Positions 19,871-59,531 of a stretch of 64,000 nucleotides of DNA are shown here, piece after piece (the stretch's first letter is position 1; every line of letters starts with the position of its first letter). The DNA is taken from positions 124,001-188,000 of the forward strand of contig JAIRYK010000022.1 in NCBI GenBank assembly GCA_031267795.1. Direction: 5' to 3'. This stretch comes from Candidatus Endomicrobiellum devescovinae. GTDB lineage: Bacteria > Elusimicrobiota > Endomicrobiia > Endomicrobiales > Endomicrobiaceae. The translations under genes were made by a program, and so were the position numbers. The notes beneath the pieces were generated by a model, which was not told where the DNA came from, did not search any database, and worked only from the letters and a program-made list of their open reading frames with translations.

Positions 19871-22367
19871 TTAACGAGGCTTTAAGTTTTTTAACCTGCT
19901 TTTTAATGACTTATATAAGTATTCGTTGGCTTTAACAGTATTTTTGTCTTTAGCAGGTTTTTGTATTTTAACTTTCTCTGAGCCAAATTTATAACTCACA
20001 CCTATATTACCTTGAACATTTTGATATTTAGCTGCAGTTAGAAAATTTATACCTGCAAAAACTAAAATATCTTCTGTTATCTTATAATTAGCTCCTAAGC
20101 CTATACCAAATTTACTTCCATATTCTTTAGCACCTACTGTATTAAATTGAGCTCCATTTATACCGTCTAAAAGTCTAATTCTGCTTTTTATTTCTGGCTG
20201 TTCTCCGCTTAACAAACTTCTATATTCTATCTTTGCATTCCAAGTAAATCTTCTTATTTCTTGTTCAATACGTAATCCTAATCTTTCTATGGCTCTGCTA
20301 TACATTCCATTTTCAACTTTTAAATCAAAGTATTCTGTTCCACTTTCTTTTATATCTTCATAACTATTTAAGTTTATTTCAAATCCTAAATATGGTATTA
20401 ATTTAAATGTATTGTTTAACTTTATTTCCATTGATCCTTCAACATCAAAACCAAAAAGCATTCCAGTAAAATCTGCTTTTGCTGTTGTTCCAATATTTTG
20501 TTTATCAGTTCTATCAGCGAATACAATGTCTATTGCTTCTTTCATGTTCCTTTCTGTATTATAAGTACCATAGTTCCCATTTATCAATCCCTTCACTTTA
20601 AATTTATCATTATTACTATAAATACCATATACCCCTAACCCTACATTTTTGATATTTCCACTATTATTTGATTGAGATAATGTATGCTCATTTACTTTAG
20701 CGTAAACTCCTGCTGATAATTTATTAATACTTTCATCACTTTCATCTCGTGGAATGTACATATCATATCCTACTAACCCACATATTTCAGTATCACTATA
20801 ATCAGATGGTGAGTTTTCATCTTCACCATATTTAGTATATTTCTCTTTTATTTGTCCCCATACTCCAGACTTTTGTTCCTTTAATCTATTATCTATCCTA
20901 GCGTATATTTCATTACTATCATTCTCACTTCCCCCACTTCTTATTACATTTGCTAAGAAATATCCGCTGTTTTGTGTAAGGAATGCTTTGGTTTTCGCAA
21001 CATCACTACTTATATCGCACATATAATCTATAAGACTATCAATCATACTACCTTCAGGCACTAAAATTGATATCCTATCATACATATCTGCCACTGAGTT
21101 CTGATTTTTCGTCAAATCTGGCATCATACCGAACATAGTTTTTGTCCTACCATAACCAGACAACTGCAATTTCATGCTTGTATCACTAATAGACTGAAAG
21201 CTGCTTTTTACTAATCTATAATCACATTCTGTTATTAAATTATTTAGTCCTGCTACTGCGCTGCTAGCTGTTAAGTTAAAAGTTAAACTATCAAACCCTC
21301 TAGGAGATAAATTTATTTTCAATTTGGCACCCTGATTTATGTTAGCTATAGCTGTATTGGTAGTAACTTGTATAGTATTTGACCCTTTCCTTATTTCTAG
21401 TGTTCCAGAAATATCCAAATTCCCTCCAACTACTTGTACATTATTATTACCCTTTAAACAGAATATTGTATCTTTATCAATTCCTATGCTATTTGAGAAT
21501 AAAGTCACATTATCATTTAAATTAAATTGTCCTCTAGCTTCTATTTTTATATTTGTTCCATTTATTTCGCTCGTTTCATTTAAATTGAACTTTCCTCTTC
21601 CCATTATGTGTAAATTACCATTTGTTCCTGCATTGTTGGTCAATGCGTCATTCATATCTACGATTGCACCTTCGCTAGTATTAAAGTAAACATCACTATT
21701 AGCCCCTATATACATAGCACTACTTGACCCATTTGCTTTATTTCCTTTGAATATTGGATACTTTAGTCGTATTAAATATTACTGTTGAATTTTCTATGTA
21801 AAATGCACCACCCTTTCCTACCACTGCTTCATTGTCAAATACATTTACATTATAAAAACTAACCTTTTCACTATTAACTATACTAAACGCTCCACCATTA
21901 TTGGCTGCTGAATTATTTTTAATTATAGTATCTTGGAGCTCATATAAATCAATTGACCATAATATATCTTTAATCTCTAATACTCCACCATTTAATCCAG
22001 TATAGCCGGATATTAGGTTATTCTTACATTTATTTAATATATAAGATTTAAGTTTATCCGCTTCTTCTCTTGAATTACCTCTCCTAAGTTCATTAGTTAC
22101 ATTAGTAAAACCTGTATCTGTCGTACTTGTTAATATCTCAAACCCGGCATTCGTTGTACTTGTCAAAACATCAAGCTTTGTACTTAATCCTACAAATCCT
22201 GTAGGAATTGTAGTTTGTCCTGTAATTAATTGTATTGTGGTAGTACTTAAAGCATTAACTGCGTCTGCTGTCAGTTGATCTGCTTCCACTCTTATTTTTC
22301 CTGTAAATATTAAAAAACCAGAAATAATAAAAATTAATAAGATTTTTGTTGGATTATAAATCCTCAC
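19871..22367 (-). pseudogene. Autotransporter adhesin-like protein, frameshifted
   Basis: A GTG start at 22367 with AAGGAG just upstream gives a signal peptide and about 200 residues with POMP-like repeats (N-N-G-G-A-F, K-G-G-A-F). The frame stops at 21738. A second frame continues N-K-A-N-G-S-S-S-A and runs 614 residues to 19871, through a beta-helical passenger to a C-terminal autotransporter barrel of about 300 residues starting near K-S-G-V-W-G-Q. Removing one A from the AAA at 21746-21748 joins the two as N-I-Q-G-N-K-A. After the last barrel strand (G-V-S-Y-K-F) there is an unusual basic tail of about 30 residues. Surface exposure is family inference. Broken, or phase-variable. Confidence 0.7.
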
Positions 22368-31259: not shown

Positions 31260-31596
31260 TTCATTTATCCTTTTTCAAAATGCAATATAATATAATGCAA
31301 TATTATAATATTAACGTATTGATTTTATTATTTTCAGACTATTAAAGCAATGAATAAAAATAAAAAGCTATTAAGTTTGCTGTGAAATAAATTTTATTTT
31401 TGTATTAATACATTAAAATTAGATTTCTCTATAAAATCAAATATAAATGGAATAAAATATTGCTGAGATAGATAAAAGATAGTCAATGTTGCTTACTAAG
31501 ATTTGATTTGGTAGAATTTAGGGCTGTTATTAGTTATCTAATCTATCAATATTATTGTTTAGTATAGATAAACGATTAAAATTAAAGGAGATGTTT
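31260..31596. other. Divergent intergenic region between thrC and secreted HAD-like gene
   Basis: About 340 AT-rich bases serving as the upstream region of both thrC (minus) and the exported HAD-like gene (plus). Near thrC a short direct repeat of ATGCAATAT occurs twice within 31279-31313, overlapping -10-like TATAAT sequences. The 16-base sequence at 31450-31465 recurs exactly at 33036-33051. No gene is supported. Confidence 0.45.
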
Positions 31597-32163
31597 ATGA
31601 AATTAGTTAAGTATTTATTTTTATGTTTTTTAATTCTGACTAGCTTATCAACTTATACGACGGCGAAACAATCACCGAAAATAGAAATAGTAAAAAGCTC
31701 GTCTTGGGAAAAAGCTATTAAAAGTATAACCTCTCGTGTATTGCAGTCTAATTCGCAAAAGAACATAATATGCATTACCGACGACGGCATTCTTTTGGAC
31801 AGCCAATTAAAAGCTATACCTAAGAGCTATAACCTTTTTTATTTTATGAAATATAGAAAAATTCCTATTTTTTGTTTAGCTACAATCGCAACGGCTGAAA
31901 AACTTAAAGAAGAAGGGTTTAGGTTTAATACCATTTCTGCTTCTGTGGAGGACAACTCAAAATTTTCAATAACTGACGGAGTTATTCGCGGACAGATTAA
32001 TGATAACAAAATACCAGGATTAGTCTTGTTTTTGGAAAAAACTAATTTTACTCCTGACCAAATTATTTTTATAGATGACTCTTATAAAAATATTGAAGAT
32101 ATGATTGATTTTTGCAAAAGTAGCGGAATTGATTGTTTTGCAATTAATTTAGTTTTAAAATAA
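31597..32163 (+). CDS. Exported HAD-like protein (DUF2608 type), probably catalytically altered
   Basis: A 188-residue protein with a signal peptide ending near T-T-A at residue 23. The start is ATG 31597, because AAAGGAG (31584-31590) is 6 bases upstream; the longer frame to 31555 has no ribosome site. The mature part looks like a HAD-fold domain of the DUF2608 kind: a first motif I-C-I-T-D-D-G-I-L-L, a middle P-I-F-C-L-A-T, and the acidic motif I-I-F-I-D-D-S-Y-K-N. The usual first-motif order is D-x-D-G; here the nucleophile position is Thr61, with Asp63 kept, so phosphatase activity is doubtful. It is the first of three exported enzyme-like genes in this region. Confidence 0.65.
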   Translation: MKLVKYLFLCFLILTSLSTYTTAKQSPKIEIVKSSSWEKAIKSITSRVLQSNSQKNIICITDDGILLDSQLKAIPKSYNLFYFMKYRKIPIFCLATIATAEKLKEEGFRFNTISASVEDNSKFSITDGVIRGQINDNKIPGLVLFLEKTNFTPDQIIFIDDSYKNIEDMIDFCKSSGIDCFAINLVLK

Positions 32164-32175
32164 AAAAACGACTGG

Positions 32176-32311
32176 CTGACAAATATTAGTGAGTGATAGT
32201 ATTTTAAAAGGTTTTTACAATTATTTTGCATTTAACCCTTTTGAACTGTTTAGGATAGAATAAAATACAGAAATATACCCTACATACTGCATTTTAGTTA
32301 ATATTTGTCAG
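32176..32311. repeat. 136-bp element bounded by 13-bp exact inverted repeats
   Basis: CTGACAAATATTA at 32176-32188 is exactly inverted at 32299-32311. The interior has no reading frame I can support. It could be a small non-autonomous element or just a chance long-range hairpin; no target duplication is visible at the edges. Confidence 0.4.
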
Positions 32312-32358
32312 AAGCATACAAATTTCTTCTTGTAATACCGATAAGATAGTAGGGTAAA

Positions 32359-32799
32359 AAATATTTATTTGAAGGACTTTACGCTTTTGTCGGCACAATC
32401 CGCAAACAAAATATATCAAAAGGTAGATTTAGGTTTGCGAGCTGTTTGTATTTGAAAGAAAGTCTTGAAAAAATTTAGCAAATGCTAGAAACTAACTTTG
32501 AAGAAATTATTGAAAAGTATGTTGAACTGAACATCGCTTACACTTTTATAGATGGAAGTGGCAGAATTTGGCTGGATTTGCTATTAAAAAAGTTTGTATT
32601 GATTGGCAAAGGTTGATAAAATTGCTTATTTGCAGGCAATGGAACGAAGCCCGATAAACGATTTAGAGATTAGAACTCTTTTTGAAAGAGGCTTTAACTG
32701 ATAAAATTGACGGACGTGAGCTATTTATCAAAGGTATTGAGCAATCATATTATTATGAAGAAGACGAAAACCATAAAGAGAATATAATTAAAACCTGAG
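32359..32799 (+). pseudogene. Fic-family gene remnant
   Basis: Conceptual translation gives [22 protein letters not shown], a TAG stop at 32476-32478, then [14 protein letters not shown] and a Fic-motif relic, then, after at least two frame changes, [13 protein letters not shown] and a Tyr-rich end at 32799. This matches Fic (AMP-transferase-fold) proteins. The catalytic H-P-F-x-x-G-N-G-R has become Y-T-F-I-D-G-S-G-R with the following residues deleted, so the gene is dead on several counts. The 5' part is missing. It is a different Fic subtype from the intact gene at 36.8 kb. Confidence 0.75.
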
Positions 32800-32938
32800 T
32801 TTAAATGCTATAAAAACATACCAGAGTTCTTTTGTCTGTAAATTCATAACACTAAAAAAGCTCTAATCTTAACAATCTACTTCAACTTTGTTTCCTTAAT
32901 ATCTCTTTTTCCAAAATCTTCCTCCGACGACAACCCTG

Positions 32939-33022
32939 CCTTTTTACTCTTCCCAATAAACTTAAGTATCAAAATTTGCAAATTTTTCACAATAAAATAG
33001 ATAATCTTTATTTATTAAGTTA
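32939..33022 (+). repeat. Dispersed upstream repeat, copy A
   Basis: Positions 32939-32967 match 35658-35686 at 24 of 29 bases, including CCTTTTTACTCT and ATAAACT. TTATTTATTAAGTTA at 33008-33022 recurs exactly at 35698-35712. Both copies lie just upstream of genes for signal-peptide enzymes. Confidence 0.55.
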
Positions 33023-33035
33023 TATCATATGCATA

Positions 33036-33051
33036 GAATAAAATATTGCTG
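33036..33051 (+). repeat. 16-base repeat shared with 31450-31465
   Basis: GAATAAAATATTGCTG occurs here and at 31450-31465. A shorter relative (TAGAATAAAATA) is at 32256-32267. Two of the three copies precede genes for exported enzymes on the same strand. Confidence 0.5.
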
Positions 33052-33068
33052 GTAATGGGATACTTGCA

Positions 33069-33427
33069 ATGAAAAAGGTAATAGGGACGTTGTTATGTAT
33101 TTGCTTGTTAGCTTGTTTTTCTTTTGCTGAAAAAATTAATGTTTTATTATGTTTTTCAGAAAATTACACTATTCAATCAGAAGTATTAATTACATCTATT
33201 CTTTCTTCTAAATCTCCAAATGCACATTTCAATATTTACTGCTTTAGTCCAGATTCTAACCTAAATACGTATCACTCGTTAAAGAAAATAGTTGTTTCCC
33301 TAGATAATAAATCCAAAATATCTTTCTATAAAACATCCTTGTTTAAAGATGTAAAAAGTATAGGAGCATCTTGAAGGCTAAGGCTTCTTGTACCTAATTT
33401 CTAAATAGCGTCAATAAAGTTATATAT
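33069..33427 (+). pseudogene. Glycosyltransferase family 8 fragment with signal peptide
   Basis: The first 101 codons encode a signal peptide (MKKVIGTLLCICLLACFSFA) followed by the N-terminal part of a GT-A glycosyltransferase of family 8 type (I-N-V-L-L-C-F-S-E-N-Y, V-L-I-T-S-I-L-S-S). A TGA at 33372-33374 is followed in frame by R-L-R-L-L-V-P-N-F, then a TAA; another frame continues L-N-S-V-N-K-V-I-Y, the usual approach to the D-x-D motif. Nothing recognisable remains after 33427, so the catalytic half is lost. A signal peptide on such an enzyme is unusual and matches the neighbouring exported enzymes. Confidence 0.65.
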
Positions 33428-33572
33428 TAAGAATAATAATATATTGTTTTATTTCTTGAAAAAAATTTAATCTAATAAGAGGTGTATATGAAAAAAAGAT
33501 TTTAATAAGATTGTATTAAAGAAAGAAGTTAGTTGCGAATAGGAAATTAAAAATTCAAAAGAGAGCAATTTT

Positions 33573-35429
33573 ATGAACGCATTAACATTGATATTTGCCA
33601 GTCTTTGTATTTTTGCTATAGGGTATCGGTTTTATGGTATTTTTTTATCTAGGAAACTTTTGCATATTAATTCTGGACGAATTACGCCTGCTCATAAATA
33701 TTACGACGGACGCGACTATGTGCCTACAAACAAGAACGTTCTTTTTGGACATCATTTTGCGGCAATTGCAGCGGCGGGACCTTTGGCAGGTCCTGTGTTA
33801 GCTGCTCAATTTGGATTTTTGCCCGGCGCTTTATGGATACTTATAGGCTGTGTGCTTGGCGGCGCTGTTCATGATTTGGTCGTGCTTTTTGCCTCGTTGC
33901 GCCATAAAGGGCAGAGTCTGGCTACGATTGCGACAAAAGAACTTAACGGAACTATTGGAATGGTAGCCGCATTTGCAATTTTATTTATTTTAGTTATGAC
34001 TCTTTCTGGGCTTTCACTAGTTTGCGTTGGAGCAATGAACAACGCACCATGGTCTCTTTTTGTTGTTTGTTCTACTATTCCTATAGCCATACTCATGGGA
34101 ATAATTATGAAGTATTGTCAAAAGTCAGGCATTGTTATTGCAAGCATTTTGGGATGCGTATTGTTGATGTTTGCAATTTTATTAGGGAAAAACGCCGTTG
34201 GCGTTGCGTCGCTACAAGCTTTGTTTACATGGAATGCAAAACCGCTTTCTATCGCAATTGCCGTGTATGGGTTTTTTGCATCGGTGCTCCCAGTGTGGTT
34301 TCTACTTGTTCCAAGGGACTACTTATCCTCCTATTTAAAAATAGGAACGATTGTTTCTTTAGCTTTAGGAATAATTTTTATTCATCCTGTTATACAAATG
34401 CCAGCATTTACTAGCTTTATTAAAGGAGGAGGATCAATTATTGGCGGTCCTGTGATCCCGTTCATTTTTATAATTATAGCTTGTGGAGCTATTTCTGGGT
34501 TTCACGCAATAATTGGAACAGGAACTACTCCCAAAATGCTAAATAATGAAAATGACCTTCTCTTTGTAGGATATGGGGCGATGCTTGTTGAAGGGTTTGT
34601 AGCCATAATGGCTTTAATAGCGGCGGTTACTCTTGCGCCGGGAGACTACTTTGCGATAAATACACCAAAGTCAGCTTATGACGCTTTCCTCGCGGCAAAT
34701 CCCGGATTAGCCGTTAAGGATCTCGCATTTTTTAGTGAGAAGATAGGAATAGATCTTGCGGGAAGAACTGGAGGAGCAGTGTCTCTTGCCGTCGGCATGG
34801 CGAATATATTTAGCAAAATTCCCTCTATGGATAAGTTAATGGCATATTGGTACAATTTTGCCGTTATGTTTGAAGCTGTATTTATTCTTACAGCTATTGA
34901 CGCTGGCACAAGAGTTGGAAGATTTTTCTTACAAGAATTGCTTGGTCGTGCGATTCCATACTTTAAAGATCAAAAGAGAAAAGAGGGAGTTTTAATAGCC
35001 GGGTTGCTGTTTACTCTTTCATGGGGTTATTTAGTCTATACTGGGGATATTGGTAGCATATGGCCACTATTTGGAATAAGCAATCAACTTCTTGCGTCTT
35101 GCGCTCTTATTGTATGCACTACAATGTTTATTAGAATGAATAGAGGTAAGCTTGCCTTGCTCACGGCAATACCGGGAATTTTTATGGCTGCCGTCACATT
35201 GTGGGCTGGATACATTCAAGTATTTGGAATGCAATTATCCAGTGGAATATTTTTAAAAGGATATTTCCACAAAAACCAATTTCTTTTAGGAATTTTAGCT
35301 ATAATAGTGATGATTTTTATGATAATTGTATTTGTTAGCTCTTTCAAAAAATGGTACGAATTAGCCAAAATTAAGTCTCTAACCACAGATAAATATGGCG
35401 AACTTGTAAAAGCGGTAGTTGAAGAATAG
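33573..35429 (+). CDS. cstA: Carbon starvation protein A (peptide / pyruvate transporter family)
   Basis: A 618-residue inner-membrane protein with about 16 hydrophobic segments. It has the CstA hallmarks: D-G-R-D-Y-V-P-T-N-K, F-G-H-H-F-A-A-I-A-A-A-G-P-L-A-G-P, and G-T-G-T-T-P-K-M-L. CstA/BtsT proteins import peptides or pyruvate; the substrate here is not decidable. It is noticeably more GC-rich and better conserved than the decayed genes around it. A weak AGAGAG ribosome site precedes the ATG. Two hairpins lie downstream. It is the only clear core-metabolism gene of this accessory stretch. Confidence 0.93.
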   Translation: MNALTLIFASLCIFAIGYRFYGIFLSRKLLHINSGRITPAHKYYDGRDYVPTNKNVLFGHHFAAIAAAGPLAGPVLAAQFGFLPGALWILIGCVLGGAVHDLVVLFASLRHKGQSLATIATKELNGTIGMVAAFAILFILVMTLSGLSLVCVGAMNNAPWSLFVVCSTIPIAILMGIIMKYCQKSGIVIASILGCVLLMFAILLGKNAVGVASLQALFTWNAKPLSIAIAVYGFFASVLPVWFLLVPRDYLSSYLKIGTIVSLALGIIFIHPVIQMPAFTSFIKGGGSIIGGPVIPFIFIIIACGAISGFHAIIGTGTTPKMLNNENDLLFVGYGAMLVEGFVAIMALIAAVTLAPGDYFAINTPKSAYDAFLAANPGLAVKDLAFFSEKIGIDLAGRTGGAVSLAVGMANIFSKIPSMDKLMAYWYNFAVMFEAVFILTAIDAGTRVGRFFLQELLGRAIPYFKDQKRKEGVLIAGLLFTLSWGYLVYTGDIGSIWPLFGISNQLLASCALIVCTTMFIRMNRGKLALLTAIPGIFMAAVTLWAGYIQVFGMQLSSGIFLKGYFHKNQFLLGILAIIVMIFMIIVFVSSFKKWYELAKIKSLTTDKYGELVKAVVEE

Positions 35430-35528
35430 GCTAATTAACTTCGCATAGAGTATAAGATTTGTAGTGTTATAGTAAAAATCTTAAAATCTATAAGAAATGA
35501 TTTGGACTTGAAGAAAGATGAAAGATCC

Positions 35529-35561
35529 CCTCTGAGTTTATTAGAATGGTAAACTCAGAGG
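35529..35561 (+). terminator. 12-bp hairpin downstream of cstA
   Basis: CCTCTGAGTTTA (35529-35540) and TAAACTCAGAGG (35550-35561) pair perfectly around a 9-base loop, 100 bases after the cstA stop. There is no T-tract, so it may stabilise the 3' end rather than terminate alone. Confidence 0.5.
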
Positions 35562-35608
35562 AGAGTTCAGATAAAAAGATTGTATATTGAAAAGTAATGT
35601 AAGCAAAT

Positions 35609-35641
35609 CTCAAAAAATTTGTCCCTCTTTTTGAGTTTTTT
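35609..35641 (+). terminator. Rho-independent terminator candidate
   Basis: CTCAAAAA (35609-35616) pairs with TTTTTGAG (35628-35635), followed directly by six T's. It lies downstream of cstA and of the first hairpin. Confidence 0.55.
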
Positions 35642-35657
35642 CACTCTCAAAATCCTT

Positions 35658-35712
35658 CCTTTTTACTCTATCCGATAAACTCAGGTTTTAATCAAGATTA
35701 TTTATTAAGTTA
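35658..35712 (+). repeat. Dispersed upstream repeat, copy B
   Basis: Matches copy A at 32939-33022: 24 of 29 bases identical at the 5' end, and a 15-base exact match (35698-35712) at the 3' end. It is shorter than copy A by an internal gap of about 29 bases. Confidence 0.55.
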
Positions 35713-35793
35713 AGGCAGTGATATTGGAAGAAGGGATAGGCAAGAGGTGGATACTTATGAACTACATAAATCTAAGATAAGCATATATGTATT

Positions 35794-35802
35794 TGATATA
35801 AT
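35794..35802 (+). promoter_or_regulatory. Extended -10 promoter for the PMM-like gene
   Basis: TGATATAAT: a TG one base before a perfect TATAAT (35797-35802). There is no good -35. It gives a transcript starting about 30 bases before the ATG at 35839, which has AAGGGAG 7 bases upstream. Confidence 0.55.
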
Positions 35803-35838
35803 AGTGAAACAATAATCACAAGTAAAGGGAGATATGCA

Positions 35839-36687
35839 ATGCTAAAAGGTAAGTTTTCTTTTTTAAAGTTTCTCATGACAGTAGTTATGGTCTTAGCAAT
35901 TGTCACAGAGATCTGCGAAATAAAAGCTTCGGCAGAGGATATTAAAAGTTCTGAAATAGAAATTATTTGTTTGTTTGATATGGACGGAACCTTAACCCCG
36001 TCAAGACAAGCGATGACAGAAAAATTCGCTAAATGGTTTTATGATTTTATAAACAAAAACGAGACCTATATAGTGACGGGATCTGATATTGGAAAAATCA
36101 AAGATCAAATACCAGAAAATATATATGAAAAGATTGGAGGAATTTACGCCTCAATGGGCAATGAGTTGTATAAGAAAGGGAAAATTGTTTATAGGCGAGA
36201 TTTTAAGCCTAAAAAATCTCTTTTGAAACGTTTAGAAGCTTATAGAAAAAACACAAAATACCCTGGACAGTTATATCCAAATTACATAGAGAAACGTTGT
36301 GGAATGATAAATTTTTGTGTTTTAGGCAGAGATTGCCCAAACGAAGCCAGAGTTGAATACGGGAAATGGGATGCCGTTAATGGAGAAAGGCTGGAAATAC
36401 AGAAAGAGCTGACGAAATTATTTAAGGAGTTAGATATTGTTATTGGGGGAGCTATCAGCATAGATATAGTTCCAAAAGGGTTTGGAAAAGAACAGGTTGC
36501 TGACCGCGTAAGAAAGACGTATCCGAAATCTCTAATAGTTTTTGTTGGAGATAGGACAGAAGAAGGTGGTAATGACTATTCTTTAGCGCAAAGACTATTG
36601 CAACTTGGCAACAGCGAAGTTATCGCCGTAAAAGATCCTGAAGATACGATAAAATGTTTGGAAAATTATATGACAAAGAGGAAGTAG
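35839..36687 (+). CDS. Exported eukaryotic-type phosphomannomutase (HAD family)
   Basis: A 282-residue protein. Residues 1-32 are a signal peptide with A-S-A cleavage. From residue 43 it aligns by eye with eukaryotic PMM1/PMM2-type phosphomannomutases: nucleophile loop F-D-M-D-G-T-L-T-P (Asp47, Asp49), T-G-S-D, the substrate-binding R-C-G-M-I-N and G-R-D-C (Arg153, Arg164), G-G-A-I-S-I-D-I-V-P (203-212) and the acidic loop V-G-D-R-T-E-E-G-G-N-D (236-246). All key residues are kept. The family interconverts mannose 6- and 1-phosphate in the cytosol, so export is unexpected. It is monocistronic, with its own promoter. A looser alternative is a HAD-IIB sugar phosphatase. Confidence 0.75.
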   Translation: MLKGKFSFLKFLMTVVMVLAIVTEICEIKASAEDIKSSEIEIICLFDMDGTLTPSRQAMTEKFAKWFYDFINKNETYIVTGSDIGKIKDQIPENIYEKIGGIYASMGNELYKKGKIVYRRDFKPKKSLLKRLEAYRKNTKYPGQLYPNYIEKRCGMINFCVLGRDCPNEARVEYGKWDAVNGERLEIQKELTKLFKELDIVIGGAISIDIVPKGFGKEQVADRVRKTYPKSLIVFVGDRTEEGGNDYSLAQRLLQLGNSEVIAVKDPEDTIKCLENYMTKRK

Positions 36688-36797
36688 CGTTTGGTTGAGA
36701 GAGAGGCGGTAAAATGCTTTTGAAGAGATGCTAAGATTGTCTCTTACAGCTCGTTTACCTATAGATTCTTAAGTGGCTAGATGTAAATATATTATAG

Positions 36798-37814
36798 TTA
36801 AATCTTGCAAAAAACGCCTTTGGTGTTGCCGCCCTGTTTTTTTATCCTGCCTTTTTCTATCAAACCTTTCAATAGCGTATTAACATGTTGTCTTGAAACT
36901 TTTAAGAATTTAACCACATCTCTTGCCGTAAATTCACCTATGGCAGTAAATTTCTCTAAAACTTGATTTTCTCGCGGGGTTAGTCTCATAGATACGGATA
37001 TTTGGGACAATGAATTTTCTGCCCGTTCTATCGCGCTGGCAAGGGAATACTTTAAGCCATCAGTAAAGTATTCAAGCCACTGTGTTAAATCCCCTTTATC
37101 TGCTGTTGAAAGCTTATCGGAATATAGTCTTCTGTCGGTATCATAGAAGTCGTCAAGGACAAAATACTTGTTTATCTGATAGCCGTTTTGAATTAAAAAT
37201 AAAGCCGTAAGCAATCTGCAAGTTCTGCCGTTTCCATCAACAAAAGGGTGCAGATATACATATTGGTGGTGAAATATGCCTGCTTTTAATATGGGTAAGG
37301 TTTGACCGTAGTTTTTAGACCAAGAAAATAACTCTTGCAAGTACTTTTCTATCTGCTCTTTCTTATGATACGGCGGATTATGCTTGACTATCAGTTCCAG
37401 CCCCTTTGGCGTTTGTATTCTGTTTCCTACCACTATAATACTGTTTCTTATTTTACCTGCTATTTTGTCTTTAACTCCTGTCAGAAGTTCTTTATGAATA
37501 GCCAACAGAGTATTCAAATCAAAGTCTTTTAACAGCGTTAGTTTTTTTAGAATAGCAAAGTAATTGGCTACTTCTTTTTCGTCCCTTGTAGCAGGAACTC
37601 TTCCGCCAAGCAAAAGGTTCGTTACTTCGGGCAAAGACAAGGAATTTCCCTCTATGCTGTTTGAAACATATGCCGACTGTATAAGGTTATTTCTCTCTAA
37701 ATTAAGCCAAAGGCTTTTAGGAAGACGCAGTTGCTCTATCTGTCCGTATAGTCTTTCTATGGCAGATATATTTTCAAGCAGTTTTCTTGTTAGTTGATAT
37801 TTAGGATTAAACAT
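36798..37814 (-). CDS. Fic-domain protein with autoinhibitory helix and C-terminal wHTH
   Basis: A 338-residue Fic protein, usually an AMP-transferase of target proteins. An N-terminal inhibitory motif S-x-S-I-E-G-N (residues 51-57) marks class II Fic proteins; the Fic motif H-P-F-V-D-G-N-G-R (189-197) is complete. The C-terminal ~60 residues form a winged helix-turn-helix (F-T-A-R-D-V-V-K-F-L-K-V-S-R-Q-H-V-N). The start is M-F-N-P-K-Y at 37814: the upstream in-frame part is repeat DNA of the promoter. The promoter places transcription start at or next to the ATG, so the mRNA may be leaderless. Targets unknown; not paired with a visible antitoxin gene. Confidence 0.88.
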   Translation of the reverse strand: MFNPKYQLTRKLLENISAIERLYGQIEQLRLPKSLWLNLERNNLIQSAYVSNSIEGNSLSLPEVTNLLLGGRVPATRDEKEVANYFAILKKLTLLKDFDLNTLLAIHKELLTGVKDKIAGKIRNSIIVVGNRIQTPKGLELIVKHNPPYHKKEQIEKYLQELFSWSKNYGQTLPILKAGIFHHQYVYLHPFVDGNGRTCRLLTALFLIQNGYQINKYFVLDDFYDTDRRLYSDKLSTADKGDLTQWLEYFTDGLKYSLASAIERAENSLSQISVSMRLTPRENQVLEKFTAIGEFTARDVVKFLKVSRQHVNTLLKGLIEKGRIKKQGGNTKGVFCKI

Positions 37815-37820
37815 AAAACC

Positions 37821-37862
37821 ATTATACTTTATTGTCAATGTTATTGTCAATATTATTGTCAA
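37821..37862 (-). promoter_or_regulatory. fic promoter with three phased TTGACA repeats
   Basis: On the minus strand TTGACAATAA occurs three times at 12-base steps (ending at 37838, 37850 and 37862 in plus coordinates). The middle copy is a perfect -35, 18 bases before a perfect TATAAT (37821-37826). The -10 is followed by 6 bases and the ATG. The extra copies look like binding sites, possibly for the protein's own winged helix. Confidence 0.65.
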
Positions 37863-37945
37863 GTATGGGTATTGGATAAGAGCCGCCGACCTAACGGTCT
37901 GGGGAGCCCATATATGGCTTAAAGAAACTTGGATTTTAAGGAAAG

Positions 37946-38906
37946 TTAGATTTAGACCCTTTTATTAGAAGCGGTAAAATTGAATTGCATTTTGTTTCGC
38001 AAAATTTAGTTATTCATAAAAATTCTACGCCATATGAATTTATGGTATGGGATATGATTGTACGGATTAAGAAACGGACTTAAAGGAAAGAAAGCGGGTT
38101 GCTATACCAAAGCGAGTATTCAAAGAATGTTATGCAATCCGTTTTATATTAGCAAGATTTTACGCAAAGGCGAATTATATCCTCACAAGTATCCGATTTT
38201 TATTGACCTTAAAACTTTTGAAAAGTGCCAAAATGTGCGAAACAAAAAAGATTAGACCATACAAAGAGCCATTCAAAATCTTTCATTTTCAAAAATTTAA
38301 TTCACTGCGGAGTTTGCGGTTGCTTAATCGGTTCAGCCCAAAAGAAAGGAAAATATGTTTATCTTAACTGCAACCATTACAAAGGCAACTGCAATCAAAA
38401 AGAAGTTAATGAAAATGTTGTTTTACCGCAGGTAGAAAAGGCTATAGAAGCAATTTCTATACCAGACGAGTATTCCCGCAATTTTGGATAATTTACAAAA
38501 ATATGAGCGTTTAGAAGGTTCAAGCAATGCTTATATTGCCGACAATGCAAACAAGGACATTGAAAAAATTGACAAGAAGTTAAAGGGCTTGCTTGATTTA
38601 AGGCTTGAAAATGAATTAACACAGTAAGAATACGCCCAAAAGAAAAATGAATTGTTAAACAAGAAGACAGGGCTTGAAGCGATTATTAAGGCTGACAACA
38701 AAAACCCCGAAGTTTTTAGGTTAAGTAGGGAAACAATAGTAAAGATATTCAAAAGTTCCGAAGTGGATACAAAAAACAAAATTTTGAATTTGATACTTCG
38801 GAACTTAACGCTTAAAGAAAAAGTGCTTGATTTTTCATACAAAAGTCCATTTGAGGCAGTGCCAAACTTTACAAATGGAACACTTGGGGTGGCTGACGGG
38901 ACTTGA
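37946..38906 (+). pseudogene. Large serine recombinase remnant
   Basis: Successive frames give I-E-L-H-F-V-S-Q-N-L-V-I-H-K-N-S (from 37946), a recombinase domain (38058-38255: T-K-A-S-I-Q-R-M-L-C-N-P-F-Y, then I-F-I-D-L-K-T-F-E-K-C-Q), a zinc ribbon (38225-38491: H-C-G-V-C-G-C-L-I, then C-N-H-Y-K-G-N-C), and a coiled-coil tail interrupted by TAA after E-N-E-L-T-Q (near 38625) and ending at 38906. The N-terminal resolvase catalytic domain with its serine is missing. At least three frameshifts and one nonsense codon make it non-functional. The 3' end overlaps the 3' end of tRNA-His by about 20 bases, as expected for an element that inserted at a tRNA. Confidence 0.8.
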
Positions 38907-38962
38907 ACCCGCAACCTTCGGCTCCACAAACCGACGCTCTAACCAATTGAGCTACAACCACC
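38885..38962 (-). tRNA. tRNA-His (GTG)
   Basis: Cloverleaf on the minus strand. The acceptor stem pairs from 38962 with 38888, including the extra G at -1 paired with C73, a tRNA-His identity feature. Anticodon loop TTGTGGA with GTG inside a perfect 5-bp stem, T-loop GGTTCAAGTCC. CCA is encoded (38885-38887). Confidence 0.95.
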
Positions 38963-39156: not shown

Positions 39157-40561
39157 TTATGCGTTGCGTATTAATAAGTATGCTAAATTTGCTGCTAAAA
39201 TTACTCCTAGAAAAATGAAGCGATTTTTACATTTAAGATTTATTGAACAAAACAAAAAAAGGAAGTAAAATAACAACTCAATTATTGTAGATTTTTCAAA
39301 GTTTATAACAGCATATTTTATATTAGCCATAATATTTGTTATAGATAAAACAAAATTCAAAATTATTGATAAAATTATAGAAACAAGCACAGCTAAATGC
39401 TTTAAAATAAAACTTAAAGCATAGAAAGAAATGCCTAAACATAAAATAACTCCTGTTAATGGCACAATTATAATATTTGTTATAAAAGAAATTATTGAAA
39501 CTTTGCCAAAATAATACATACAAATAGGAATTAAAACTATCTGCACAGCTAATGTAACGGATAAGACACCGCAGAAAAAACAAAGTAAGTAACTTTTCAC
39601 ATTTCTAAATATACCGTAAACATCTTTATAAAAACATACTATTCCTATTGTCGCACCATAAGACATTTGGAATGAAGCAGTAAATATCTGTTGAGGCTCA
39701 AAAATAAGTATAAACAAAGCAGATAACGCCAACGAGTTAAAAATCAGAGGTTCTCTATCCAAAGCTAATGCAATAAATATGCAGGAAAGCATTATTGCAG
39801 CTCTTAAGGCAGGCGGATTAGCGCCAGTCATTAGTGCATAGAAAAATATAATAGGAATACTTAAAAGAGAAGCTTTTTTTAAAGATAAACCTACTGCTTT
39901 CAAAATGAAAAGAACGATAAAACTTATAAAGCATACATGCAATCCACTTACTACTAAAATATGCATTATGCCAGAATTTGCAAAATCATTTTTTACGCCT
40001 TGCGTTAAAGAACTTTTATCGCCGAGTATCAATGACTTTAAAATATCTGAATGGGGTTTTTTAAAATAAGAGTCAAATTTACTTGATATATCTTTACGGG
40101 ATTCTATAGCAAACTTTTTAATTTTATTAGGATCTGACTTTATATATTCAAAATAATAAAGGTATAAAACAACATAAATGCCGTTTCTTGCAAGATATTT
40201 TTGATAGTCAAACCCCGAAAGATGATTCTGGTCTTTTTAGCTTGCCTTCTATGTTTAATATATCGCCGTAAGATATGGAATACCCTCCGGGTGAATTTAC
40301 AATAATTTTCTCACTAATAGCATTCCCATTTACATTATAAGTTTCCAATAGAAATCGTTTTCTATTTTTAAAGATGTAAGGCTCTGATAAGACCTTCCCC
40401 TCTATTGAAGCTATGTTGTTATTTTCGGCAAGCATATAAAGTTTGCTTTGATTTTCATATGAAAAATATCCGAAGAAATCTGCAGAGATTATTATTAAAG
40501 CATAGATTAAAAAAGCAGTTATAACTGGTCTTTTTCGCAGTAACTTAAGTATCCAATCCAT
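39157..40561 (-). pseudogene. comEC: ComEC-type DNA uptake channel, frameshifted
   Basis: The first frame (40208-40561, 117 residues) has the ComEC OB-like part ending R-P-E-S-S-F-G. The second is open from about 40215 to 39157: F-D-Y-Q-K-Y-L-A-R-N-G-I-Y, then L-I-L-G-D-K-S-S-L, then the competence domain with H-I-L-V-V-S-G-L-H and N-P-P-A-L-R-A-A-I-M, plus about nine membrane helices. Removing one G from the G4 run at 40213-40216 joins the two as S-S-F-G-F-D-Y-Q-K-Y-L. The protein would be about 468 residues and lacks the C-terminal metallo-beta-lactamase domain. ComEC moves single-stranded DNA across the inner membrane. TTG 40032 is the only usual internal start for the downstream part. Confidence 0.75.
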
Positions 40562-57578: not shown

Positions 57579-59531
57579 TTATTTTTGAATTCCTATCTTT
57601 TTAACCTTTTTATCACCTAAAAGTGTCTTTACAACCACAAAATATACTCCCGGCGCTATACGGTTTCCATCTTGATTTCTTAAATCCCATTTTACCATTC
57701 TTCTTTTTTCCGCTGTATATATTTCTTCAATTAAATCGCTTGCATTGAAAGATTTTACAAACTCACCTGTTACCGTGTAAACGTTTATATCTATTACATC
57801 TGTATGAAAAGGGAGATTTGTTATCTTTATGTATCCTTTTTCGCTTATGCTTACAGGGTTTGGATAGCAAACAAAATCTTCAACGCTATTTGGCGGTACA
57901 AGACTTGTATCTAAAACTAGTTTGCCATAACCGTAAGTACAGTCGGGAGAAGATTGTATCTGTATTGCGTAACCAACAACTTGATCTTTTAAATCAGAAA
58001 TAGTTGTTCCTGTACTTAAACTTAATAATAAAGCAGCAGCACCTGCAACATGCGGTGCTGCTGCAGAAGTACCTGCAAAACTTTTATACCCAAGAGAGGC
58101 TGTTGTAACGCCTGTTGGAGCTACTAATTCAGGTTTCATGAGCCATGGGTTGCGCACTGGTCCTCTGGAACTGTAATATGCTATAGGACCTGAACCATAA
58201 TTTGAAACATTTACAGCGCCAACAGTTAAAGCATCTCATGCGTCTGCAGGCATACATAGAGACGATTCTGGATTTCTATCAATAGAATTTTCAACAACGT
58301 CTCCTGATGAGTTTCCCTTGGAAAACACTAACCTCATATATCTTCCGTTTGGTGAAGAAGTGTCCTGATCCTGAAAAATTTTTATTTTTAACTTATTAGG
58401 ACGGGTATAGTTACTAAATATAACCTTTTTCATGGGATCCTGTACGAAATTCGTATGACCTATTTCAGTGTTATATTGATCATATACATATATATTATAT
58501 ATGCTATTTCCGTTATAATCGTCCCACATTAAAGTAATATCAGCATCTGTTGGAACATTAACACTTAAAAAGTCGCTTCCATTAGGAAACCTTGTATATC
58601 TTGTTCCAGAATTCTGAAAACTTCCAAACCATGTATGGTCAGCTTCATTTCCAGCTGCAACAATAGACAAAAATTTATTGCCTGTAAAGCTTGTATCAAT
58701 ATAAGCATCTATCCCTCCTCCTCCTCCTGCCATAAAACTTTCAGGAACATCAAAACCTATAGAACAACTTACAATTTTTATACTATTTAGTGAACAATAA
58801 ACAAGTGCATTTGAAAAGCTCACCTGATTATCAACTTTAAGTAAATACATTTCAGCAGCTGGAGCTATATCGTAAATTATTTCCGCACATGCAGAGCCAT
58901 GAGTATCGCCAACAGATGGATTTACAGGTTGCTGACCATTCGTAAAATCAACAGTAGTAAGATTACGTGGAAGCTCACCACGGTTTTGTAAATCTAAATA
59001 ACCTTTAAAACCTTTATCTAAAACAGCAATTTTTACACCAGCACCGTCAACACCGTCTAAAATGAATTTAGTTGCATTGATCGCATCTCTGCCTTCGCTG
59101 ACAGTTTCCATAGGTTTTGCATGGTCGCTTACATCCGCATAGTATGCACCAGATACTTTTTCAAGCTCAGATATCAGACCTACAGGAACATACGCTATTA
59201 AGTAACTTTCCGATTTTATATATTCTATATTGTGCATAGTAAAAAAACTTGTATCCACATTATCTGACTTACCGTCAACTGGATAAAAAATAACTTCAAT
59301 TTTATCACTTAAATGAGAATAATCAGGGGTTTCAACAGATTGACCTTGTCCAGAAATACCTCTAAGATAAACTGGAACTTCATCTTTTGATGAAAAAGCG
59401 GAGGTTGTCGCTCTTTGTTCTTTTACAGAGGCATTTTTTAGACGCTCTGTGATAACAATACCTGATGCATAAGATAGGAAACCAGATAAAATAGATAAGA
59501 CAATAACTATTCTGAACGATATATTTTTCAT
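57579..59531 (-). pseudogene. Exported S8 (subtilisin) protease with T9SS-like C-terminal domain, in-frame TGA
   Basis: A single 651-codon frame with one TGA at 58236-58238 between P-A-D-A and D-A-L-T-V-G-A-V-N. It has a signal peptide (about 1-24), then the S8 domain: Asp in I-A-V-L-D-K-G-F, His in G-D-T-H-G-S-A-C, Asn in A-A-G-N-E-A-D, and, after the TGA, Ser in F-A-G-T-S-A-A-A-P-H-V-A-G. The last ~85 residues (C-Y-P-N-P-V to V-K-K-I-G-I-Q-K) look like a FlgD/T9SS type A sorting fold (V-Y-T-V-T-G-E, A-P-G-V-Y). The TGA removes the catalytic serine unless read through. It is coupled to the PorV-like gene (ATGA overlap). Confidence 0.8.

What the first reader, a model, noticed from the sequence alone, without database searches (positions are those of the whole stretch)
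35839..36687. Eukaryotic-type phosphomannomutase carrying a bacterial signal peptide
From residue 43 the protein shows all visible key residues of PMM1/PMM2-type enzymes (D47, D49, R153, R164, G-G-A-I-S-I-D, V-G-D-R-T-E-E-G-G-N-D), yet residues 1-32 are a clean signal peptide with A-S-A cleavage. This family normally works in the cytosol on mannose phosphates. An exported version in a likely protist symbiont suggests a host-directed or periplasmic role and possible gene transfer from a eukaryote.
Basis: partly seen in the sequence, partly recalled or inferred. Interest (0 to 1): 0.78.

Follow-up and report, generated by a model that had tools for sequence, protein, structure and literature searches.

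The report
Exported sugar-phosphate mutase in a symbiont
A gut bacterium, probably living inside single-celled hosts, makes a sugar-phosphate-converting enzyme that normally stays inside cells but here carries an export tag, which may help the bacterium feed on its host's phosphorylated sugars.

Summary
Confirmed: the ORF at 35839-36687 is an intact phosphomannomutase (PMM) of the HAD type with a convincing Sec signal peptide cut at about residue 32, and it keeps the catalytic and phosphate-binding residues of PMMs. Not supported: transfer from a eukaryote. The protein falls in a bacterial clade (Elusimicrobiota plus gut Alphaproteobacteria), apart from seven eukaryotic PMMs. The export signal is the odd part: 0 of 48 relatives tested have one, yet the same genome holds a second, diverged PMM with its own signal peptide. 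Beside that copy lies a sugar kinase (ROK), also with a signal peptide. The window gene sits on a 7.5-kb island ending at a tRNA-His and almost wholly absent from one congener. The genome encodes two sugar-phosphate-type antiporters, one beside mannose-6-phosphate isomerase. Best reading: outside the cytoplasm the enzyme turns hexose-1-phosphates into importable hexose-6-phosphates. That is the job of the type III-secreted phosphoglucomutase of Chlamydia trachomatis, done here by another enzyme family and export route. Export and activity are untested. New variant of a known kind.

The parts
35839..36687 (+). exported HAD-type phosphomannomutase/phosphohexomutase, 282 aa
35839..35934 (+). signal peptide, residues 1-32 (...IKASA|ED)
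   Evidence: low-confidence stretch 25-38 in the model
35824..35831 (+). Shine-Dalgarno-like AAAGGGAG
   Evidence: read from sequence
35977..35985 (+). D47-M48-D49 codons, catalytic DxD
   Evidence: alignment; role recalled for the HAD family
31365..38884 (.). island absent from congener G026 apart from a 49-nt DUF2608 remnant; right edge at the 3' end of tRNA-His
38885..38961 (-). tRNA-His (gtg), island edge
38225..38491 (+). fragment of a decayed serine recombinase (Zn ribbon), other frames broken nearby
   Evidence: PF13408, 36.2 bits
36798..37862 (-). Fic-domain protein, neighbour on the island
   Evidence: PF02661, 66.4 bits
33573..35429 (+). CstA-family transporter, neighbour on the island
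33069..33374 (+). truncated GT8 glycosyltransferase with signal peptide (21.5 bits, just under the cut-off of 24.3); a full-length copy with a near-identical N-terminus is elsewhere in the genome (L132 9383-10267)
31555..32163 (+). DUF2608 protein with signal peptide (ATG probably 31597)

Best explanation
A HAD-type phosphomannomutase that the bacterium exports through the Sec pathway. Outside the cytoplasm (periplasm, or beyond) it interconverts hexose 1- and 6-phosphates, mainly turning host-derived Man1P or Glc1P into Man6P or Glc6P. These would be taken up by the two organophosphate:phosphate-type antiporters the genome encodes, Man6P then entering glycolysis through mannose-6-phosphate isomerase. 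It belongs to a small set of sugar enzymes with signal peptides in this genome (second PMM copy, ROK sugar kinase, GT8 glycosyltransferase), at least partly carried on mobile islands. Shown here: family, kept residues, fold match, signal-peptide features, second copy, leader-bearing kinase, island, transporters. Inferred: export, mutase activity, substrate, link to uptake.
For: The recalled catalytic, phosphate- and sugar-binding residues are kept. Best structural matches are PMMs, Z 23.5-27.9, against 19.1 for the Lactococcus alpha-PGM and at most 18.0 for trehalose-phosphatases. 0 of 48 homologues have a signal peptide, so it was most likely gained, and a second PMM copy in the genome also has one. 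A ROK sugar kinase with signal peptide stands beside that copy; open-framed kinases with signal-peptide-like N-termini occur in two further congeners. Own kinase against the G035 one: dN 0.31, dS 1.36, purifying selection, though the leaderless own copy gives the same (0.32, 1.41), so this does not speak to export. Two OPA-type antiporters, one beside ManA. Literature: endosymbiotic Endomicrobiaceae import sugar phosphates through OPAs (PMC11257099, passages); human PMM1/2 convert Glc1P to Glc6P with a KM of 7-8 uM (PMC5736207, passages); C. trachomatis, which can take up only Glc6P, has a secreted PGM (PMC9251005, abstract). Three classical phosphohexomutase matches could serve cytosolic needs. 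A bacterial relative is fused to a mannose-6-phosphate isomerase domain.
Against: No localisation or activity data. Only 1 of 41 genus genomes has the PMM family, so it is not a conserved trait. The second copy has lost the equivalents of R28, S54, N137, R143, R150 and D190 and is probably not a mutase. A mutase needs a bisphosphate activator, which outside the cytoplasm would have to come from the host. OPA substrates are unknown even in the literature; both OPAs score below curated cut-offs, and the family used to find them rings in 14 of 14 control genomes, over its cut-off in only 2. The kinase is below the glucokinase cut-off (226 of 260 bits). Nothing links the gene to the antiporters beyond a shared genome. 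In the termite hindgut Glc1P is ascribed to bacteria, not to the flagellates (PMC4100516, passages).
Confidence: 0.45

Rival explanations
1. A host-directed effector: secreted into the flagellate cytoplasm, it shifts host GDP-mannose, glycosylation or glycogen metabolism rather than feeding the bacterium.
For: Signal peptide; on an island with a Fic gene, a family that from recall is often used against hosts; microsporidia secrete hexokinases into their hosts (PMC6460350, abstract; PMC3976299, passages).
Against: A Sec signal alone leads only to the periplasm; I tested for no outer-membrane route. The host presumably has its own PMM (not checked).
Confidence: 0.15
2. A periplasmic sugar phosphatase that scavenges phosphate or free sugar.
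For: HAD-IIB relatives include phosphatases; PMM1 has some bisphosphatase activity (PMC5736207, passages); the second copy has lost phosphate-binding residues of mutases but keeps the catalytic aspartates.
Against: The window copy keeps the phosphate-binding residues of mutases, which a plain phosphatase should not need (inference).
Confidence: 0.17
3. A passenger on a decaying island: a cytosolic PMM that picked up a hydrophobic leader by chance and is on its way out.
For: Island has a truncated GT8 and a broken recombinase; gene in 1 of 41 genus genomes.
Against: Frame and active site intact; two copies each with a leader that passes the strict form of the rule.
Confidence: 0.15
4. The leader is an uncleaved membrane anchor, the enzyme facing the periplasm.
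For: By eye, a polar stretch (ICEIKASA) separates the hydrophobic core from the cut.
Against: ASA|ED fits signal peptidase I; no later hydrophobic segment.
Confidence: 0.08

Closest known systems
Eukaryotic phosphomannomutases PMM1/PMM2 (PF03332)
   Same: Fold, cap, catalytic DxD, phosphate-binding arginines, S and D of the sugar pocket; 31-34% identity to the four eukaryotic rows compared
   Different: Signal peptide; bacterial clade; the eukaryotic enzymes are cytosolic (recalled)
Chlamydia trachomatis CT295, secreted phosphoglucomutase (PMC9251005, abstract)
   Same: A housekeeping hexose-phosphate mutase that gained an export signal in an intracellular bacterium that takes up Glc6P
   Different: CT295 is a type III secretion substrate; from recall it belongs to the alpha-D-phosphohexomutase superfamily, not HAD; here a Sec signal and a HAD fold, uptake link untested
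Bacterial PMM-type HAD enzymes of gut Alphaproteobacteria and Elusimicrobiota
   Same: Nearest relatives, 48-60% identity in the nine leaderless rows of that clade compared; one fused to a PMI domain
   Different: None of 48 tested homologues has a signal peptide
Secreted hexokinases of microsporidia (PMC6460350, abstract; PMC3976299, passages)
   Same: Sugar-phosphorylating enzymes sent out by an intracellular lodger through a signal peptide
   Different: Eukaryotic parasites; the parallel applies to the ROK kinase beside copy 2, not to the PMM itself
Lactococcus HAD-type alpha-phosphoglucomutase (4bnd)
   Same: Same fold (Z 19.1), same reaction class
   Different: 23.5% identity; K, Q, K, T, N where PMM1 has R28, R143, R150, S188, D190

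Membership tests
PF03332 phosphomannomutase family | Score above the curated cut-off | tested here: met
   95.6 bits against 22.4
PF03332 phosphomannomutase family | Catalytic DxD and substrate-binding R, R, R, S, D | tested here: met
   D47, D49, R56, R164, R171, S207, D209; roles recalled from PMM1 work
PF03332 phosphomannomutase family | PMM fold with cap domain | tested here: met
   model pLDDT 87.2; 9hpb_D Z 27.9, rmsd 2.0 over 233 residues
PF03332 phosphomannomutase family | Mutase activity with bisphosphate activator | not testable with these tools
   needs purified protein
PF03332 phosphomannomutase family | Cytosolic location (usual, not defining) | tested here: inconclusive
   signal-peptide rule passed; no SignalP, no localisation
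Eukaryotic PMM subfamily (transfer from a eukaryote) | Nested among eukaryotic PMMs in a tree | tested here: not met
   outside the eukaryotic clade in both trees; but p-AU 0.0505 for forcing it in, and only 7 eukaryotic rows, none from the likely hosts
Alpha-D-phosphohexomutase superfamily (the one recalled for CT295) | PF02878 domain | tested here: not met
   no such match up to E 1
CT295-like secreted mutase (works like) | Export signal on a mutase of an intracellular Glc6P importer | tested here: inconclusive
   signal peptide yes, OPA-type genes yes; substrate, export and intracellular life of this genome untested

The most novel reading that the evidence does not exclude
The bacterium has moved the entry steps of sugar metabolism outside its cytoplasm: an exported sugar kinase phosphorylates host sugar with host ATP, an exported mutase converts hexose-1-phosphates, and the resulting hexose-6-phosphates are imported by phosphate antiporters. 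The parts travel between flagellate symbionts on tRNA-targeting islands and plasmids.
Probability: 0.28. Interest if true: 0.85.

Novelty: new variant of a known kind. Interest (0 to 1): 0.6.

Why it matters
Endosymbiotic Endomicrobiaceae are thought to live on host sugar phosphates, and the exact substrates of their antiporters are unknown (PMC11257099, passages). Exported sugar-phosphate enzymes would make the supply side directly testable, and would be a case, independent of Chlamydia and microsporidia, of an intracellular lodger placing its own metabolic enzymes outside the cell. I found no report of it in these searches, of which I saw listings only: 'Endomicrobi' with 'phosphomannomutase' 0 papers; 'phosphomannomutase' with 'Elusimicrobi' 2, by title unrelated; four terms on secreted symbiont PMM 7, by title unrelated; terms on exported glucokinase 1 and 1, on diatoms and on CPR bacteria by title. 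'Signal peptide', 'secretion', 'periplasm' and 'phosphomannomutase' have 0 occurrences in the main text of PMC11257099. The library holds open-licence papers only.

Tried and rejected
Eukaryotic gene transfer: not supported by the trees, with the borderline AU value told above. Contamination or misassembly: unlikely, because both flanks of the island match congener G026 and the gene's GC of 35.2% lies within the range of the 11 genes measured (26.8-39.3%). Wrong start codon: ATGs at residues 13 and 17 lie inside the leader and would leave it without its charged start; a TTG at residue 45 would remove it; I saw no ribosome site before any of them by eye. Phage origin: 8 phage records match, five marine cyanophage records at about 34% and three others at 25-28% identity; the viral-contig scan gave no relative. 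Plasmids: 43 records, the 20 listed at 22.7-28.3%, mostly sphingomonads. Promoter and terminator scan gave nothing above chance. 'Dead cytosolic glucokinase' idea: the in-frame TAGs reported for L119 and L103 lie at the end of the frame and L106 aligns without a stop, so the idea was dropped. Whether the two window-genome PMM copies are sister genes is unresolved (p-AU 0.486). Whether the leader-bearing kinases share one gain is unresolved. dS between PMM copies is saturated. The island could be a gain here or a loss in G026; only that one congener shows the near-empty site.

Full report
Observation. The ORF 35839-36687 (+) encodes 282 aa. Pfam PMM 95.6 bits, cut-off 22.4; HAD-IIB 62.1, cut-off 41.8. 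In PDB sequences the best hits are PMM2 chains (E 3.9e-29 for mouse PMM2, named); the Lactococcus HAD-type alpha-PGM follows at 4.4e-6. A model from an alignment of seven sequences has mean pLDDT 87.2, pTM 0.72. Foldseek and VIA-align rank PMMs first (9hpb_D: TM-score 0.88 normalised by target length; Z 27.9, rmsd 2.0, 233 residues).

Signal peptide. Residues 1-32 have charge +3 before a core of mean hydropathy 3.0, and ASA|ED. My rule passes 13 of 54 window ORFs of 150 aa or more; nine of the 13 have at most one later hydrophobic segment, and six of those nine, this one included, pass the strict form. It passes 0 of 48 homologues (one of them a phage protein) at any start. L050, L055 and L069-L075 were not in that count (missed by my motif filter or excluded), and duplicate loci were dropped. 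In one search every one of the 48 except the fusion L004 has a start codon at most 19 residues before the DxDGT motif.

Active site. Of 21 positions tabulated against human PMM1, 14 are identical, among them D19, D21, R28, R132, N137, R143, R150, S188, D190 and D226 in PMM1 numbering; seven differ (56, 140, 141, 186, 218, 227, 228). At 218 the window has D like PMM2, PMM1 has N; position 186 (M in PMM1, Q in PMM2, A here) varies widely among homologues (roles recalled).

Origin. 65-row tree (IQ-TREE, LG+C20): seven eukaryotic PMMs, all from PDB, form one clade (100/100); a 49-row bacterial clade (97/91) holds the window protein, with Elusimicrobiota and Alphaproteobacteria. Within it both window-genome copies lie in a six-row Elusimicrobiota group (91/92). 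Without four distant rows the 49 and the 7 separate at 100/100, five other rows not counted, and a six-row bacterial set with both copies gets 97/82. Forcing the window pair with the eukaryotes costs 13.1 log units, p-AU 0.0505. Family counts, own genome included: genus 1 of 41 genomes; phylum 10 of 340, two of them fragments inside giant frames. Without it: order of the Holosporales genome G340 5 of 35; order of G343 27 of 153; a sample of the class of G341 14 of 385, partly overlapping the former.

Second copy and leader-bearing kinase. The genome's other PMM (L088, start probably 7944) is 50.8% identical, has its own signal peptide, and has lost six of the compared residues while keeping the catalytic aspartates. 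424 bp downstream is a ROK kinase, 362 aa, nearest to the glucokinase subfamily (226 bits, cut-off 260), with VLA|DI after its core, one later hydrophobic segment by my count, and the DNDAN, GExGH and CxCGxxGCxE motifs (meaning of motifs recalled). A search of 40 genus genomes, own included, found matches in 19, many of them fragments. I examined ten loci: seven N-termini printed, L102 and L119, L106 only where aligned. Three have signal-peptide-like starts: own, G035 and G027; the G035 start passes the rule but not its strict form. The G027 one stands near a ParA-like gene, which suggests a plasmid. The own genome also has a kinase without leader (L119). A full-length GT8 with a signal-peptide-like N-terminus lies at L132 9383-10267; the window GT8 is a fragment. 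Of the other GT8 matches in the genome (3, this full-length one among them), L129 starts without a leader and L131 is incomplete.

Island. Congener G026 has thrC, then tRNA-His, tRNA-Arg, a comEC remnant, thiL and tsaE. Window 31101-31364 matches L092 901-1148 and window 38886-39255 matches L092 1494-1886. Window 31365-38884 is missing there, apart from a 49-nt DUF2608 match. Of ten relatives fetched, thrC was found in all; G033 and G027 carry DUF2608 at 88-89% and their contigs end there, G029 has a broken copy, G026 the remnant; in the other six no DUF2608 match was found, though some contigs are short, and no G026-like gene order was seen in them either. The right edge is the 3' end of tRNA-His, and a broken serine recombinase lies beside it. 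The second copy also follows a tRNA (Gln, L088 6526-6601) with a Fic gene between.

Uptake. TIGR00881 finds two good matches and one weak one, none over its cut-off; the model matches in 14 of 14 control genomes, over its cut-off in 2. L056's best NCBIfam match is UhpC, 321 bits of 564; L057's is TIGR00881, 253 of 408. L056 is beside a ManA gene (165 bits, cut-off 116). Three PGM_PMM_I matches show classical phosphohexomutases.

Literature. PMC11257099 (passages): endosymbiotic Endomicrobiaceae lost the ABC glucose transporter, take up sugar phosphates by OPAs gained by horizontal transfer, and exchange genes with other flagellate symbionts including Alphaproteobacteria. PMC8809381 (passages): genes for glucose-6-phosphate use in some species. 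PMC9251005 (abstract): Chlamydia CT295. PMC5736207 (passages): PGM activity of PMM1 is 33.5% and of PMM2 5.8% of their PMM activity. PMC4100516 (passages): Glc1P in the termite hindgut follows cellulose breakdown and is ascribed to bacteria, so a Glc1P supply inside the flagellate is not shown.

Conclusion. An ordinary bacterial PMM-type enzyme has been given an export signal, in two copies in one genome, one of them beside another leader-bearing sugar enzyme, in a family whose endosymbionts eat host sugar phosphates. The mechanism is an inference from anatomy; its precedent is Chlamydia. Identity of the genus (Endomicrobiellum or near it) rests on the same-family match to a GenBank MAG labelled Endomicrobium, not on a named record of this genome.

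Noticed in passing
window 39157-40561 (-): comEC appears broken: a Competence domain ORF of 291 aa and a separate DUF4131 piece of 117 aa, though comEC is reported as usually conserved and expressed in related symbionts (PMC8809381, passages).
   Followed up: partly
window 57579-59531 (-): A subtilase split into two ORFs, the second with weak Por_Secre/FlgD-like tail matches.
   Followed up: partly
window 19871-22367 (-): Autotransporter beta-domain ORF next to an ORF with signal peptide and GGAF-type repeats; perhaps one protein split in two.
   Followed up: no
L016, L017: PMM C-terminal fragments inside giant open frames (5862 and 2449 aa) of related same-family genomes; L017 also holds PGM_PMM domains.
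   Followed up: no
L004 5563-6699: Mannose-6-phosphate isomerase domain fused to PMM in one ORF, followed by a cytidylyltransferase-like gene.
   Followed up: partly
L054 2989-3681: Cyanophage S-SSM7 encodes a PMM-type protein annotated as hypothetical.
   Followed up: no
L088 4966-6045: A 359-aa protein with signal peptide and no Pfam or NCBIfam match up to E 0.01, near the second PMM copy.
   Followed up: no
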